Source: a virus. Taken from it: a DNA stretch of 33,496 bases. Within the stretch, counting starts at the first letter, position 1, and each line of letters begins with the position of its first letter. Below the pieces are notes generated by a model. That model worked only from the letters and a program-made list of their open reading frames with translations. It did not search any database and was not told the DNA's origin. The stretch spans positions 1-33,496 of IMG/VR virus record IMGVR_UViG_3300025840_000127, one strand, 5' to 3'. The position numbers were made by a program, and so were the translations under genes. Positions 2,176 to 32,103 of this stretch are shown piece by piece.

Positions 2176-2233
2176 CGGATCACTCCTTCTTTGCTATTGC
2201 AAAGCATAGAAAATAAAAAAGTTCAACGCACAA
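2176..2233 (-). promoter_or_regulatory. TTGTGCGTTG element 1 and possible late promoter
   Basis: The 10-mer TTGTGCGTTG reads on the minus strand at 2233-2224, overlapping the last codons of the large terminase gene. It is followed by a T-rich stretch and TATGCT 14 bases after the 10-mer. Taking TTGTGC as a -35 gives an 18-base spacer to a TATGCT -10. The Shine-Dalgarno AAGGAG and the ATG at 2175 follow. The same 10-mer occurs at three other late-gene upstream regions. Promoter activity is inferred. Confidence 0.5.
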
Positions 2234-5684: not shown

Positions 5685-5735
5685 GACGTACCTTTCACCA
5701 AAAAAATCTATCTAAACCTTTGCGTACCTTTTTAG

Positions 5736-5765
5736 CCTATAACTCGGGTTTGGGACTACTGACAA
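5736..5765 (-). promoter_or_regulatory. Possible sigma70 promoter before the small-protein cassette
   Basis: On the minus strand, TTGTCA (5765-5760) and TATAGG (5741-5736) are separated by 18 bases, in the 115-bp intergenic stretch 5685-5799. The motif AAAGGTACG occurs twice between this site and the ATG at 5684, once as the ribosome site. The call rests on match to consensus only. Confidence 0.4.
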
Positions 5766-5799
5766 TCACGCTAGTGCAGTTTTTTAACCCCACCCCCTG

Positions 5800-6177
5800 C
5801 TAGGACAGATCAATTGTTACGCTAATATCCCCAGCAATTTGCACTTGCGAACGATCTATCGGTTTGAACCCAGCCCGATCTAACAGATCCTTGGATGCTT
5901 CCAGCTGCACATACTCGCTCTTAGCTCCACTGGATAACTCCGCTACCCTGCCTAGTGCCCTGACAGCGTGAATCCCAAATGCATCTGCTGTTGCTTGCAT
6001 GAGATACTGTTGCACATGCGGAGTTTTCATAGCTTTGTATGCAGAGGCTCGTCCGCTGTTCCCCGCTGCGTACCCAGCCTCATGTGCAGCTTTTGCTACA
6101 TTGCCACCGTTTGCTACAAACGCATCCACTAGCGCTCGTTGCCTTTCTGTTAGATCACGCTTAATCACACCACTCAT
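5800..6177 (-). CDS. Terminase small subunit (DNA recognition)
   Basis: The product is 125 aa from the ATG at 6177. The N-terminal half reads LTERQRALVDAFVANGGNVAKAAHEAGYA, the helix-turn-helix opening of the Terminase_2 small-subunit family: residues 8-36 contain the ER/Q-x2-FV, N-A-x-AA-x-x-AGY pattern. It is followed by a helical region (TPHVQQYLMQ) and a C-terminal LLDRAGFKP motif also typical of the family. It would select viral DNA and recruit the large subunit. The open frame extends upstream to 6282, but that extension is a G/A-rich translation of the leader and overlaps the presumed promoter, so I prefer the ATG with GAAAGGG upstream. Confidence 0.85.
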   Translation of the reverse strand: MSGVIKRDLTERQRALVDAFVANGGNVAKAAHEAGYAAGNSGRASAYKAMKTPHVQQYLMQATADAFGIHAVRALGRVAELSSGAKSEYVQLEASKDLLDRAGFKPIDRSQVQIAGDISVTIDLS

Positions 6178-6220
6178 GTCTAAAGCCCTTTCGACTGTCT
6201 GTTCATAGTCCTTACTGTCG

Positions 6221-6243
6221 CCCCCCTCTCCCTCTCTCCCCCC
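6221..6243 (-). other. G-run polypurine tract in terminase leader (possible quadruplex or pac-type signal)
   Basis: The minus strand has six G, then AGAGA, three G, AGA, six G: 23 pure purines 44-66 bases upstream of the small terminase start. The spacing of G-runs is compatible with an intramolecular quadruplex in DNA or in the leader RNA. A packaging recognition site near the small-subunit gene is known for several headful phages, so a pac role is conceivable; neither function is shown by sequence alone. Confidence 0.45.
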
Positions 6244-6244
6244 A

Positions 6245-6282
6245 TTGATAGCACTCGATGTAACACCCCTGTCAACGCACAA
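6245..6282 (-). promoter_or_regulatory. TTGTGCGTTG element 2 with TTGACA, late module head
   Basis: The 10-mer reads on the minus strand at 6282-6273, within a longer AATTTGTGCGTTG shared with element 4. It runs into TTGACA (6275-6270), a perfect -35, followed after 19 bases by TATCAA (6250-6245) preceded by TG, an extended -10-like arrangement. The first late gene, the small terminase subunit, starts about 70 bases downstream of it. It also forms the outer end of the left arm of the inverted duplication. Confidence 0.5.
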
Positions 6283-6397
6283 ATTGCACGTTTGCTACAA
6301 CTTTGTACCTGTGCACACTACAAAGGTGATTCAGAACCACAAGTTTTAGTTCTGCCTCGCTTCGGTTTACTGTCTCAGTCAGTACGCTCGTCGGCAC
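6272..6397 (-). pseudogene. Decayed mirror copy of the start of the 134-aa early gene
   Basis: Read on the minus strand, this frame gives LTETVNRSEAELKLVVLNHL followed by 16 more residues and a stop. This parallels MTKKVPTLVELKLAVLNHF...NEQFV of the plus-strand gene at 6644. The DNA is also similar across the leader (see the arm features). The ATG of the functional copy corresponds to CTG here, and the AAGGAGCC ribosome site to GAGGTGCC. It is best read as a truncated, decaying inverted duplicate, not as a working gene; an in-frame GTG at 6397 could still allow a short peptide. Confidence 0.6.
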
Positions 6398-6485
6398 CTC
6401 GTTACAGCTGCGGCCACCTCGCACGTCTTTGTTCATTGCATCGGGCCAAAGACCATTCGCAAGCAGTTTCCTCTTGCTGTTCATA
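6273..6485 (-). repeat. Inverted duplication, left arm
   Basis: The minus strand of this stretch aligns with the plus strand of 6532-6745. Shared blocks, in order, are GGAAAC..CTTGCGAAT, CTTTGGC, GCGAGG, GTAAC.AGG.GCC, TGACT.AG, an exact GAACTAAAACTT, GTTCT.AATCA and GTTG.A.CAAACG. The right arm carries about 15 extra bases containing a hairpin that are absent here. Identity is interrupted by substitutions and small gaps, so the duplication is old. I judged this by eye. Confidence 0.7.
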
Positions 6486-6531
6486 GCTGTGTGATTGTGG
6501 CTGCTGGCGGTGTGTAGTTCGACCTTTTCCT

Positions 6532-6745
6532 TGTGGGGAAACAACTTGCGAATAGCAACCTGATCTGGGGATCAGGCTTTGGCTCCGTGCATGAAGTCGT
6601 CGTTGCGAGGGTGGTCCTCGCACGTAACAAGGAGCCTAGAGCTATGACTAAGAAAGTACCTACACTCGTTGAACTAAAACTTGCAGTTCTAAATCATTTT
6701 CAAGCTACACAGGATGTTGCACCAAACGAACAATTCGTTGCTGGC
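6532..6745 (+). repeat. Inverted duplication, right arm (leader and 5' end of first early gene)
   Basis: This is the functional-looking arm of the inverted duplication: a leader of about 110 bases, an AAGGAG ribosome site and the first ~34 codons of the 134-aa early gene. Its mirror partner is 6273-6485, separated by about 46 bp. The whole 6283-6643 interval (361 bp) holds no other credible gene. I found no convincing sigma70 promoter for the early operon in it, although one is expected. Confidence 0.7.
6559..6621 (+). promoter_or_regulatory. Two hairpins in the early-operon leader
   Basis: Hairpin one is CCTGATC (6559-6565), loop TGGG, GATCAGG (6570-6576). Hairpin two is GCGAGG (6605-6610), loop GTGGT, CCTCGC (6616-6621), ending eight bases before the AAGGAG ribosome site of the gene at 6644. 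Hairpin one is the segment missing from the left arm. They may stabilise the early mRNA or modulate translation; that is inference. Confidence 0.5.
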
Positions 6746-7048
6746 ATTGCCAGAGATGAATGTTACACCTCGCACAACTCACTGGTCTACAAGAAGAAGC
6801 AGATGGCCGACAAGATTGCGGACTACGAGACAGCAGTCGAAGAAGGCAAAGACATTCGAGCGGATGCGATCGCGCGACTGCTCGATAACATGGAAGTCGA
6901 ACTAACGTTGTTAGACGAACGTCATCAAGCAGATCTATCGGTGTACGAGCAGGTCACTGGCACACAGTGGGAACCGATGGCTAAGAAACGCGCACCAGCG
7001 AAGCTATCAGATGATCGCATGAAAGCACTCAGAGCAAAGGTGGCGTAA
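6644..7048 (+). CDS. 134-aa first early protein, unknown function
   Basis: The start is the ATG at 6644, with AAGGAG ending nine bases upstream; longer in-frame starts would translate the structured leader. The protein is charged and helical: VPTLVELKLAVLNHFQAT (residues 5-22), a Lys-rich KKKQMADKIADYETAVEEGKD segment suggesting a coiled coil, and a basic C-terminus (MAKKRAPAKLSDDRMKALRAKVA). No family was recognised. As the first gene of the rightward operon it could be an early host-takeover or regulatory protein, but this is only positional. Its 5' end is duplicated in inverted, decayed form at 6272-6397. Confidence 0.72.
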   Translation: MTKKVPTLVELKLAVLNHFQATQDVAPNEQFVAGIARDECYTSHNSLVYKKKQMADKIADYETAVEEGKDIRADAIARLLDNMEVELTLLDERHQADLSVYEQVTGTQWEPMAKKRAPAKLSDDRMKALRAKVA

Positions 7049-7166
7049 GCCACCCCCGCAAGGGGCAGCACCGTCTGCCTCTTACTTCACCCTTTCGCCC
7101 AATCGGGGTCACGATTCGTGTAGGCTTGTGCGCTGCGGATCCACCCCACAATCAAGGAATAAACGA
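7049..7166 (+). other. Structured 118-bp intergenic region
   Basis: Directly after the stop at 7048 is CCCC-GCAA-GGGG, a four-pair stem closed by a GNRA tetraloop, overlapping GGCAG-CACCGT-CTGCC, an alternative five-pair hairpin followed by TCTTAC. The two are mutually exclusive foldings of the same bases. The plus strand then carries TTGTGCGCTG (7126-7135), a nine-of-ten match to the late-gene 10-mer. The region may be a partial terminator/attenuator followed by a regulatory site for the next gene; I see no gene in it. Confidence 0.4.
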
Positions 7167-7346
7167 ATGAACTTTTCTGACAGCCAACTAATCTCAGCTA
7201 TTCGATCAATCATTGCTGAAGAAGTAGACAGCCGTATCAAAGCAATTGATGAAAATGAATTTAATGTATGGGATCATAGATCTGACATTGAAGACATCAT
7301 TAGTGACTACATCAATTCAAACGTAACCATAACAATCGAGACTTAA
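7167..7346 (+). CDS. 59-aa acidic protein
   Basis: The start is the ATG at 7167, with AAGGA nine bases upstream. The product is acidic and helical (MNFSDSQLISAIRSIIAEEV start, then DIEDIISDYINSNVTITIE). No family was recognised. Small acidic early proteins of phages often inhibit host DNA-binding proteins, but no specific evidence exists here. It is the first of a run of very small early genes. Confidence 0.6.
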   Translation: MNFSDSQLISAIRSIIAEEVDSRIKAIDENEFNVWDHRSDIEDIISDYINSNVTITIET

Positions 7347-17309: not shown

Positions 17310-20069
17310 TTACCCCAATGCTTGACCAGCCGTGAACCCATACCATGTTGTGCCGCCATCATGCGTGATAAACACAAAGTAATCTACCGCAGATGCAGTA
17401 GCTGTTAAGGTTGGCGCAGTTGCGCTAGGCCAATCAACCGCTGCAGGCCATGCTACTGTATAACCGCTTGCAGATGCATCTTGAACGAGCTTCAGTGTAA
17501 AGCTAGATACCCTTCCAGAAGCCGCTGGGTTACTAAATGTAAACGTGGTGTTTTCTGTTAGCGTGTGGCTAAAATTTGTGCCATCATTTAAATCAATGGT
17601 TGTAGCGTTAGAAGATGAAGTTACAGAGTTGTATCTTTCAGAAAGTAAATCTTCGAATGAGAGGTTGCCGCTTGCATCAGACACAAGGATTTGGTCAGCT
17701 GCGCTAGGGCCAGCGGAAGGCAATGTCATAGTGTATGAAGATGTAATATCCGTTGGGACTGTAATCTCAGAATAATTTGAATTATCAGAATCATAAATTA
17801 CTAAACCATGACGATTATAAAAATGAGTGCCAGTAGAATAAATTCTTATTGTCTCTAAATCATTAACACCATCACCAGTATTACTAATTTTCAAATAAGT
17901 ATAACTGCTTCCAAACCCACTTGCATGAGCAGCAATAGAAGCTTTTACCCCTGCGCCAGGTGTCGTTGAATCAGAACCATAGAAGTCAAAAGTGCCAAGC
18001 TCTTGATCTCCGCTTGCAGCGGTGTCTGTATTTATTAATCTAAATACTGCAGTGCTTGCTGAACTAACTGAAGCGAACCCACCATTAACAAACAAATCAT
18101 CAGATGTTGTCAAATCACCAGTTACATAAACGCCAGTGTTTTGCGTAGCAAGTTTAGCACTGTTGTTGTAGTATAAATTTACAGAACTATCGCTGAGGAA
18201 TGTAGCCATAGTTTCATAACTAGCGCCTGTACCATGCCCAATAATAATGTCATCAGTAGAAACAATCTTTAGGTCACTTGAAGTTGTGGAGCCAGCTTCA
18301 ATGTAGTTGTGTGTTCCATCGTGATAAATTTGTAAATCATCACCATCACCAAGTTTTAATCTATTGACCTCTGCGCCAGAGCTGTCACCAAACTCAATGT
18401 TGTTTCCGCTTGTTGATAAAACGCCGCCAAGCTGCGGTGTGGTATCTTCTACTACCGAGCCAATGCCAGAAACATTTACAGTATTCCACTGAGTGCCATC
18501 ATAAAACTTATAGGTGTTGTCTGTTGTATTGAAAAACAAGTCACCTTCATCAAGGCTCGTTGTTGGATCAGTGCCGCCAACACGATAGCGCTCGGCAAAG
18601 CTATTTACGCCCGTTATGTTGGTCGCAACTGTGTTTACGTTAGTAATGTCAGTCGCAACTGTGTTGATATTAGAGATTCCCGCCGCAACAGTGCCAATGT
18701 CTGTAGCATCAGCCGCTACAGCATCGATATTTGTTGCATTACCAGCCACAGCGTTAATGTTTGTAGAATTGCCAGCTACAGAATTAACATTCGAAATGTC
18801 ACCCGCAACAGTCCCAATCGTATTGCTGCCAGCCAAATCGGCTGCAACTGTTCCAATATCAGTTGCATCCCCAGCAACCGCAGCTATTTCTGTAGAAATT
18901 CCAGCAACAGTGGAAATATTGTTTGTTGGGCTAATTTGCCCCGCTACTGTATTGACGTTTGTTATATCTGTCGCAACCGCACCTACATTTGCATTTGCAG
19001 TAGCAACAGTATTTACATTTGCAATATCAGTAGCAACAGTGTTTACATCTGCAATGTCAGTCGCAACGGTATTTACACTTGTGATGTTAGTACCAACAGT
19101 ATCAACATTTGCAATTGAATTTGAAACCGTATCAATTTCCGAAACTGCTTCGTTTAAATCATTAGCAGCGGTAATAACCGCAGCAATATCATCTGATACT
19201 GTAGAAACATCAGTAATTGCAGTAGCAACAATAGTAACAACACCAGTTACACCAATCTCACCAGCAACAGTATTTACATCTGCAATGTTTGTTGCAGTTG
19301 TGTTTACGTTCGTAATGTCAGTTGCAACCGTATTCACATTGGATATAGAGCCAGCAACAGTTCCAATTGTGTCTGACCCACTTAGATCAGTTGCCACTGT
19401 AGTTACATTTGCATTGTTGCCAGCAACAGTTGTGACATTTCCTGAAATGCCAGACACAGTTGTTACATCAGTGCGGATTGTATTGACATTAGTAATAGCA
19501 TTTGTTGCTAGCGTTCCGTCTTCAATATCAGCAAGCAAAGCAATGTCAGCAGCAGTGTCAGAAACAGACTGAACATCAGCAGTAGATGGGCCAGCTTCAA
19601 CCGCACCAGTTGTTAAATTAAATGCAAGGGTTTTACCTTTGCGATCATCAACAACAGGAAGCGTTAGTCCAACCCCAACATCATAATCAGTAAGTTGTAA
19701 AGCGCGTGAGGCTCTATCATCAAGGTCAGCAGCAATAGCAATGATGCGGTCAAGCTCAGTATTAAGAGCAACAATATTAAAGGAACCAGATACAGGAAAG
19801 TCAGTGGTACGCTCTAATTCAATGTCACGAGTAATAACAACAGTGGATCCACCAGTTGCACCGGTTACAGTAATTGAAACAGTACCAGTAGAGCCATCCC
19901 CACCACTAACAGTATAATCGGCTGTAATGGTTTTAAGAGTACCATCTACATAAACATTAAGATCATCGTTATCAAAAAACTCAAACGGTACAGCAAAACT
20001 AGTTTGCTGAACGCCTTCTGCTACTGAGTAAGATACACGGGCTGTGTTGTCTGCAATATTGATTGTCAT
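17310..20069 (-). CDS. Tail fibre, T7 gp17-type N-terminal domain
   Basis: The product is 919 aa. Residues 1-150 (TINIADNTARVSYSVAEGVQQTSFAVPFEFFDNDDLNVYVDG..., LERTTDFPVSG..LNTELDRIIAIAADLDDRASRALQL) match the T7 tail-fibre N-terminal domain that attaches to the tail tube. Residues about 190-490 are imperfect ten-residue repeats of the VATDITNVNT type. Residues about 545-600 contain LGDGDDLQIYHDGTHNYI, a motif common in marine phage fibres, and the C-terminus is a beta-rich receptor-binding end. A TTGTGCGTTG element lies about 50 bp upstream of the ATG. It would determine host range together with the second adhesin. Confidence 0.88.
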   Translation of the reverse strand: MTINIADNTARVSYSVAEGVQQTSFAVPFEFFDNDDLNVYVDGTLKTITADYTVSGGDGSTGTVSITVTGATGGSTVVITRDIELERTTDFPVSGSFNIVALNTELDRIIAIAADLDDRASRALQLTDYDVGVGLTLPVVDDRKGKTLAFNLTTGAVEAGPSTADVQSVSDTAADIALLADIEDGTLATNAITNVNTIRTDVTTVSGISGNVTTVAGNNANVTTVATDLSGSDTIGTVAGSISNVNTVATDITNVNTTATNIADVNTVAGEIGVTGVVTIVATAITDVSTVSDDIAAVITAANDLNEAVSEIDTVSNSIANVDTVGTNITSVNTVATDIADVNTVATDIANVNTVATANANVGAVATDITNVNTVAGQISPTNNISTVAGISTEIAAVAGDATDIGTVAADLAGSNTIGTVAGDISNVNSVAGNSTNINAVAGNATNIDAVAADATDIGTVAAGISNINTVATDITNVNTVATNITGVNSFAERYRVGGTDPTTSLDEGDLFFNTTDNTYKFYDGTQWNTVNVSGIGSVVEDTTPQLGGVLSTSGNNIEFGDSSGAEVNRLKLGDGDDLQIYHDGTHNYIEAGSTTSSDLKIVSTDDIIIGHGTGASYETMATFLSDSSVNLYYNNSAKLATQNTGVYVTGDLTTSDDLFVNGGFASVSSASTAVFRLINTDTAASGDQELGTFDFYGSDSTTPGAGVKASIAAHASGFGSSYTYLKISNTGDGVNDLETIRIYSTGTHFYNRHGLVIYDSDNSNYSEITVPTDITSSYTMTLPSAGPSAADQILVSDASGNLSFEDLLSERYNSVTSSSNATTIDLNDGTNFSHTLTENTTFTFSNPAASGRVSSFTLKLVQDASASGYTVAWPAAVDWPSATAPTLTATASAVDYFVFITHDGGTTWYGFTAGQALG
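18610..19540 (-). repeat. Thirty-base coding repeats in tail fibre
   Basis: A roughly 930-bp stretch encodes many degenerate copies of a ten-residue unit (NVNTVATDI-like), giving a near-30-base periodicity in the DNA. Such regular Val/Thr/Asn-rich repeats probably fold as a long fibrous shaft. The regular codon pattern also leaves a spurious 318-codon open frame on the plus strand. Repeats of this type can expand or contract by slippage, changing fibre length. Confidence 0.8.
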
Positions 20070-20141
20070 AGATATACCCTCGTTTGAGAGTAAACTACTT
20101 TTACTTTACAAAATCATCAACGCACAAAAACTAACGCACAA
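20070..20141 (-). promoter_or_regulatory. TTGTGCGTTG element 3, tandem pair before tail fibre
   Basis: The exact 10-mer reads on the minus strand at 20127-20118, and a nine-base version (TTGTGCGTT) at 20141-20133, 14 bases upstream. They lie in the only sizeable gap between the 1384-aa protein and the tail fibre. After the 10-mer, TAAAAG falls 14 bases downstream (18-base spacer from TTGTGC), followed by TAGTTT. A tandem arrangement is more like protein binding sites than a lone promoter box. Confidence 0.55.
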
Positions 20142-31957: not shown

Positions 31958-32103
31958 TTTAACAGTCCTAAGTTGAGTTTCGGTTTGCTACGGGTATCCG
32001 CACTTTCATCTCAACTCGGGTATCCTGTTAAGGGCCGATCAATGCGTTACGGGCCGCGATGTCAAATTGTAAACATTACTTTTATTTGGATTGCAACGCA
32101 CAA
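31958..32103 (-). promoter_or_regulatory. Capsid upstream region with TTGTGCGTTG element 4
   Basis: The 10-mer reads at 32103-32094 on the minus strand, inside the 3' end of the gp13-like gene and preceded by AAT as in element 2. TAATGT follows at a 19-base spacer from TTGTGC. The remaining 81-bp gap before the capsid ATG also contains GGATACCCG twice in direct orientation (32025-32017 and 31999-31991, 26 bp apart). An inverted pair AGTTGAG/CTCAACT surrounds part of this region. Two short repeats in front of the most abundant gene suggest regulation. Confidence 0.45.

What the first reader, a model, noticed from the sequence alone, without database searches (positions are those of the whole stretch)
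6273..6745. Inverted duplication with decayed mirror gene at the early/late divide
The minus strand of 6273-6485 aligns with the plus strand of 6532-6745 through the leader, ribosome site and first ~34 codons of the first early gene: exact GAACTAAAACTT; GTAAC.AGG.GCC; TGACT.AG; GGAAAC..CTTGCGAAT. The left copy encodes AELKLVVLNHL against VELKLAVLNHF but has lost its ATG (now CTG) and stops early. One TTGTGCGTTG site occupies its end, so a decayed early-gene copy may have been turned into the late promoter. Large inverted repeats at a divergent junction could also act as an origin, a recombination or inversion site, or a source of RNA that pairs with the early leader.
Basis: partly seen in the sequence, partly recalled or inferred. 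Interest (0 to 1): 0.75.

Follow-up and report, generated by a model that had tools for sequence, protein, structure and literature searches.

The report
Phage gene with co-evolving mirror copy
In a group of marine phages the first early gene lies back to back with an upside-down, non-coding copy of itself, and the two copies change together over evolution so that one DNA strand's RNA could fold into a giant hairpin; this looks like a new kind of phage control element, but its function is untested.

Summary
The inverted duplication is real (Smith-Waterman 62; 2000 shuffles mean 18, maximum 33) and extends to about 6238-6797. It is not a one-off relic. An inverted repeat with score 38 or more sits at the same terminase-small-subunit/early-gene divide in 68 of 108 distinct related loci, including the cultured Pelagibacter phage Hodr; none of 101 control regions reaches 38. 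Each lineage's left arm mirrors its own early gene, even where that gene is from another family, and in seven lineages it spans the whole gene to just past its stop codon. Start codon, reading frame and terminator stem are broken in the mirror, but complementarity is kept: two-sided changes in 179 cells versus 56-83 when slid. Mismatches are strongly strand-biased (G.U-type on the minus strand 315 versus 52). The minus strand folds far better than the plus strand (window z -12.9 versus -4.3). Best reading: a selected giant fold-back on the late strand, probably an RNA containing antisense to the early gene. Polymerase template switching is the main rival. No transcript data exist.

The parts
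6235..6473 (-). Left (mirror) arm: inverted, non-coding copy of the early leader and the start of gene 1; core 6279-6451
   Evidence: Smith-Waterman with shuffles; fold pairs it with the right arm out to about 6238
6535..6797 (+). Right arm: leader and first ~50 codons of gene 1 (core 6577-6738)
6474..6534 (.). Spacer (loop) between the arms; no sigma-70 consensus promoter found
6644..7048 (+). Early gene 1, 134 aa; predicted long helical hairpin (helices 29-66 and 70-105); no confident family
6546..6558 (+). TTGC-GAATA-GCAA hairpin in the early leader; its 3' half is absent from the mirror
   Evidence: sequence; the mirror-to-leader gap is seen in relatives
6559..6576 (+). Leader hairpin CCTGATC-TGGG-GATCAGG; stem sequence differs between lineages; missing from the mirror arm
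   Evidence: sequence and alignments
6604..6622 (+). Leader hairpin TGCGAGG-GTGGT-CCTCGCA just before AAGGAG (6629-6634) and ATG (6644)
   Evidence: sequence
6316..6324 (-). TTTGTAGTG, member of a TTKTAGTA element present in mirror arms only (tandem ~10-nt repeats in L017, L177, L187)
6245..6275 (-). Candidate late promoter TTGACA (6275-6270) - 19 nt - TATCAA (6250-6245), preceded by TTTGTGCG; TTGACA conserved near TerS in most lineages
   Evidence: comparison only, no TSS data
6221..6243 (-). GGGGGGAGAGAGGGAGAGGGGGG purine tract just after the late promoter, near-invariant in most lineages shown; also pairs into the fold
5800..6177 (-). Terminase small subunit (first late gene)
   Evidence: PHROG and Pfam Terminase_2 hits on 5800-6282

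Best explanation
Across this marine phage clade the first early transcription unit (leader + gene 1, in some lineages through its terminator) lies back to back with an inverted, non-coding mirror of itself, and evolution keeps the two arms complementary. Shown by sequence: conservation, lineage-specific tracking, two-sided changes, loss of all gene-like signals in the mirror, and minus-strand-biased mismatches. Inferred: selection acts on a fold-back of the minus (late) strand, most likely as RNA. The transcript would read antisense through gene 1, then the loop, then the mirror, and fold into a long hairpin rich in G.U pairs. Proposed action: the antisense half has two possible partners, the gene 1 mRNA (perfect match) or the mirror (imperfect, in cis). 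The mirror would be a built-in competitor that gates silencing of gene 1 when late-strand transcription begins, while the mirror's outer end doubles as the late promoter's control region. The existence of that transcript and this gating step are not shown.
For: Inverted repeat at the divide in 68/108 loci versus 0/101 control regions at score 38 or more. In 23 lineages the own-arm match far exceeds the match to any other lineage's mirror (L104: own mirror 355; early arm versus L158 early arm 382; versus L158 mirror 43). Formal pair count, 17 sequences: 65.3% of cells paired versus 38-42% slid; 179 two-sided cells versus 56-83 slid and 92+-7 shuffled; similar in two other clades. 39 sites changed in both arms and stayed identical, mostly in tracts bounded to under 10 nt. 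Mismatches G.U-type on the minus strand 315 versus 52 on the plus strand; the G.U term is still needed after strand composition and transitions are modelled (deviance 30.2 to 16.5). Window fold: minus -249.7 kcal/mol, z -12.9; plus -193.2, z -4.3. Minus MFE is lower in 17 of 18 lineages, z to -39; up to 488 cross-arm pairs. In all seven full-length lineages the arm ends 7-66 nt past the gene 1 stop, and the terminator stem is weakened or broken in the mirror.
Against: No transcript data; no minus-strand promoter was identified outside the right arm. In Hodr the plus and minus strands fold equally well. Between close relatives one-sided changes show only a weak strand preference (48 versus 34 and 19 versus 17). 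The same mismatch ranking would be expected for minus-strand ssDNA. Exchange of the whole junction as a cassette between relatives can make both arms change together. Identity is only 65-88%. A long RNA hairpin should be cut by RNase III.
Confidence: 0.48

Rival explanations
1. Quasipalindrome maintenance: once an inverted duplication exists, DNA polymerase template switching between the arms keeps copying short tracts from one arm to the other, so the arms evolve in concert without any function.
For: Known process: it homogenises inverted-repeat arms over stretches as short as a few bases (PMC8604942). Short tracking tracts, including transversions, fit it.
Against: It predicts spacer inversions; none was credible in 126 close-pair comparisons (two weak flags on spacers that align neither way). 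Identity is flat out to about 550 nt and falls at the gene end rather than declining with distance from the centre. It does not by itself predict the 315:52 strand bias of mismatches or arms staying at ~75% identity.
Confidence: 0.26
2. Recurrent neutral inverted duplication followed by decay.
For: The mirror is non-coding with stops and indels; arm length varies, from partial to full-length copies.
Against: No intact young mirror was seen in any locus with both arms. Site-by-site co-change occurs between close relatives. Substitutions are strongly strand-biased. Independent duplications would be needed in about 20 lineages at exactly the same place.
Confidence: 0.1
3. DNA-level element: the arms form a hairpin on the minus strand as ssDNA (replication origin, primosome or priming site, lagging-strand structure) or hold paired regulatory sites for the divergent promoters.
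For: G.T pairing in minus-strand ssDNA would give the same mismatch bias. TTKTAGTA repeats and TTGACA promoters are conserved in the mirror. A TTGCGAAC motif flanks the loop in most lineages shown.
Against: Operators or origins do not require 170-560 nt of colinear complementarity ending at the gene's terminator.
Confidence: 0.14

Closest known systems
Plant MIRNA / eukaryotic hpRNA loci born by inverted duplication of their target gene (e.g. PMC3237417)
   Same: An inverted copy of a gene gives an imperfect hairpin with one strand antisense to the target.
   Different: Here the gene itself is one arm, in a phage; complementarity is maintained along the whole arm; no Dicer or Argonaute pathway is known.
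Quasipalindromes under template-switch homogenisation (PMC8604942)
   Same: Imperfect inverted repeats whose arms evolve in concert.
   Different: Arms of hundreds of nt, stable ~75% identity, strand-biased mismatches, no spacer inversion, and a boundary at a gene end.
Phage antisense and leader RNAs: P4 CI RNA, P1 c4, lambda OOP/paQ, HK022 put, lambda nut (own knowledge)
   Same: RNA elements at phage control junctions; put and nut occur on both divergent early transcripts.
   Different: Those are short and fixed; here the element is a full gene mirror that follows whichever gene occupies the slot. No Rfam match.
ColE1 RNA I / RNA II with Rop (own knowledge)
   Same: Antisense control of an RNA; gene 1 has a helical-hairpin fold with weak Rop-like Foldseek matches.
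   Different: Foldseek matches are not significant (best E 0.04; Rop E 0.29-1.7); helical hairpins match many proteins.

Membership tests
Inverted-duplication hairpin RNA locus (MIRNA/hpRNA-like) | Inverted copy of a protein gene able to fold into a long hairpin | tested here: met
Inverted-duplication hairpin RNA locus (MIRNA/hpRNA-like) | Hairpin is transcribed and processed into small RNAs that act on the target | not testable with these tools
   no RNA data
Structured RNA under selection | Pairing conserved through changes on both sides, beyond slid and shuffled controls | tested here: met
Structured RNA under selection | Strand specificity of fold and G.U | tested here: met
   Hodr is an exception (equal on both strands)
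Template-switched quasipalindrome | Arm homogenisation | tested here: inconclusive
   Arms track each other in short tracts but stay at 65-88% identity
Template-switched quasipalindrome | Spacer inversions between relatives | tested here: not met
   no credible inversion in 126 pair comparisons
Pseudogene relic | Gene-like signals decay with no constraint on the sequence | tested here: not met
   Signals are lost but complementarity is kept
Invertible element | Both orientations of the spacer found | tested here: not met
Known Rfam RNA | Match to a curated family | tested here: not met
   no hit at E<=5 in 5700-7200
cis-antisense RNA | A promoter and transcript antisense to gene 1 | not testable with these tools
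   Promoter scans inconclusive; no RNA data

The most novel reading that the evidence does not exclude
A phage gene is controlled by a self-made, evolution-maintained mirror: a late-strand transcript several hundred nt long that is antisense to the gene and carries its own imperfect partner, so that cis fold-back competes with silencing of the gene at the early-to-late switch. The rule is independent of the gene family in the slot.
Probability: 0.33. Interest if true: 0.92.

Novelty: categorically new. Interest (0 to 1): 0.8.

Why it matters
If selection maintains it, this is a control principle I know of in no phage or bacterium: a gene tied base by base to a non-coding mirror of itself, over up to ~480 pairs and across dozens of lineages of abundant marine phages. 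It would be a large, previously unlisted RNA structure at the early/late switch, with a cultured phage and host (Hodr on HTCC1062) in which to test it. If instead it is template switching, it is an unusually long, clade-wide case of concerted evolution of inverted-repeat arms that reshapes a coding gene and a promoter.

Tried and rejected
Rfam scan: nothing. Diversity-generating retroelement idea (A-specific change): rejected, because C changes as often as A and the mirror is non-coding. Pure composition drift: a term for G.U on the minus strand is still needed in the log-linear fit. Capped perfect runs: significant in some lineages (L115, L057, L059, L119), not in others, and alignment choice may contribute, so not used as a main argument. 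Twin divergent sigma-70 promoters at the inner edges: suggestive in Hodr only; no site by consensus in the window. Spacer inversion: none credible. More distant cultured phages (BcepC6B, MEP301, VA-RY-3, Pmp11, Ss1, Mwe-JY08, HTVC035P, Lederberg, Skadi-1, HTVC031P): in the stretches fetched no inverted repeat above 36. Gene 1 function: no significant family, sequence or fold match. Literature: no paper in the library names this phage or feature. Searches were input errors.

Full report
Observation. The window is a 33.5-kb virus record encoding a podovirus-like phage: terminase, head-tail adaptor and capsid on the minus strand, early genes on the plus strand. The minus strand of the stretch left of the early/late divide aligns with the plus strand right of it at score 62, against a shuffle mean of 18.2 and maximum of 33 in 2000 shuffles. 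It is the only place in the window with such a match. Looser gap costs and RNA folding extend the relation to about 6238-6797.

Relatives. Searching with gene 1, the large terminase, the small terminase and Hodr's early gene gave about 200 loci. Of 108 distinct loci that hold the small terminase and enough sequence on the early side, 68 have an inverted repeat of score 38 or more there. The same scan in 101 control regions of those contigs has mean 22 and maximum 33. The cultured Pelagibacter phage EXVC031P Hodr (OQ414635) has one of the strongest (165). This also excludes assembly or amplification artefacts, as do arm identities of 65-88%.

Each lineage mirrors its own gene. In 23 lineage representatives the early arm matches its own mirror far better than any other lineage's mirror, even where the early arms are alike (L104: own mirror 355, L158 early arm 382, L158 mirror 43). 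Gene 1 of L119-L129 (Hodr clade), L042 and L174 gives no hit to the profile of the window's gene 1 family, yet these lineages too have mirrors, so the mirror follows whichever gene occupies the slot.

Extent. Two classes exist. In seven full-length lineages (L183, L167, L115, L104, L057, L059, L158) the arm runs through gene 1 and ends 7-66 nt after its stop codon, and identity is flat to that point in those profiled. In the short class, including the window and Hodr, the left arm reaches the late promoter or the terminase leader. In Hodr it even covers the start of the terminase gene.

What is kept and what is lost. In the mirrors examined the start codon and reading frame are lost. The leader hairpin after TTGCGAAC is missing. 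The terminator stem-loop that follows gene 1 in the full-length class is weakened or broken in the mirror although its sequence still aligns. What is kept is complementarity to the other arm. On a 17-sequence alignment 65.3% of cells pair against 38-42% when slid. Cells with changes on both sides number 179, against 56-83 slid and 92+-7 shuffled; the covariation score is 0.140 against 0.102+-0.002 shuffled and 0.057-0.084 slid. Two other clades agree. Among 13 close pairs (early arms at least 92% identical) 52 columns changed in both arms where about 14 were expected. In 17 close pairs 39 sites changed in both arms and stayed identical, mostly in tracts bounded by unchanged mismatches to under 10 nt, 27 transitions and 12 transversions. 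Caveat: exchange of the whole junction as a cassette between relatives, suggested by two leader alleles within the window clade, moves both arms together, so some of these are old rather than recent changes.

Strand. Pooled over 20 lineages, mismatches that are G.U on the minus strand number 315 and on the plus strand 52. Transversions leaning the same way number 177 against 59. A log-linear model with base composition of both arms and a transition term still needs the minus-strand G.U term (deviance 30.2 to 16.5, one parameter). The order of frequency resembles the stability order of mispairs on the minus strand, and is the reverse of what the plus strand would favour; this reading of mispair stability is from general knowledge. 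Folding agrees: the window minus strand gives -249.7 kcal/mol, z -12.9, and the plus strand -193.2, z -4.3. It is the most extreme of the 600-nt windows sampled, every 1000 nt on both strands. In 18 lineages the minus strand has the lower energy in 17, z down to -39; Hodr is the exception, with equal strands. Cross-arm pairs reach 488.

Late promoter. TTGACA with an 18-19-nt spacing to a TA-rich hexamer lies just upstream of a near-invariant GGGGGGAGAGAGGGAGAGGGGGG tract in most lineages. It is preceded by TTGTGCG or by GTGACGYTACGTCAC, and in many lineages there are TTKTAGTA elements farther upstream within the mirror. In Hodr the mirror of early codons itself forms TTGACA-17-TATACT. It is not shown by transcription data.

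Mechanism. Best reading: a fold-back of the minus strand is selected, most likely as RNA that includes antisense to gene 1 with the mirror as its built-in competitor. Steps shown: the arms, their conservation, co-change and strand bias. Steps inferred: the transcript and its effect on gene 1. Main rival: polymerase template switching, known to homogenise inverted repeats over tracts as short as a few bases and to invert spacers (PMC8604942). No credible spacer inversion was seen in 126 pair comparisons, and the flat identity, gene-end boundary and strand bias speak against it, but it is not excluded. Minus-strand ssDNA structure is also possible.

Gene 1 product. AlphaFold (mean pLDDT 87) gives a long helical hairpin. 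Foldseek matches to Rop/Rom and others are not significant, and no family matches at a useful level. Its role is unknown.

Novelty. Rfam has no match and the open literature searched has no description. The nearest analogues, plant MIRNA loci and quasipalindromes, share single features only. The label 'categorically new' describes the distance from known kinds; the function remains unproven.

Noticed in passing
window 2224-2233, 20118-20127, 20132-20141 (one mismatch), 32094-32103 (minus strand): Further copies of TTGTGCGTTG on the late strand, some near late gene starts; possible phage-specific promoter element. The count is only modestly above chance.
   Followed up: partly
window 7126-7135 (+): TTGTGCGCTG inside a conserved GTGTAGGCTTGTGCGCTGCGGATC-like block between gene 1 and the next early gene, kept in all twelve close relatives compared; likely a second early promoter.
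   Followed up: partly
L167, outer ends of both arms: GTGACGTTACGTTACATG occurs on both outer ends of the junction in L167; related palindromes GTGACGCTACGTCAC precede the late TTGACA in L174, L175, L195 and L085: possible activator site.
   Followed up: no
loci L020, L022, L024, L104, L110: The purine tract lies farther from the small terminase, and an extra leader of about 100-150 nt with its own inverted sequence (AATCCTTCTT...AAGAAGGATT) separates them.
   Followed up: no
window 17310-20069 (-): Large late protein with many repeats of the type NVNTVATDI.
   Followed up: no
loci L172, L157, L185, L205, L065: Low arm-alignment scores but very strong predicted folds beside the small terminase, on the plus strand in some (z to -18.6; only 6 shuffles each): perhaps a different hairpin arrangement.
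   Followed up: no
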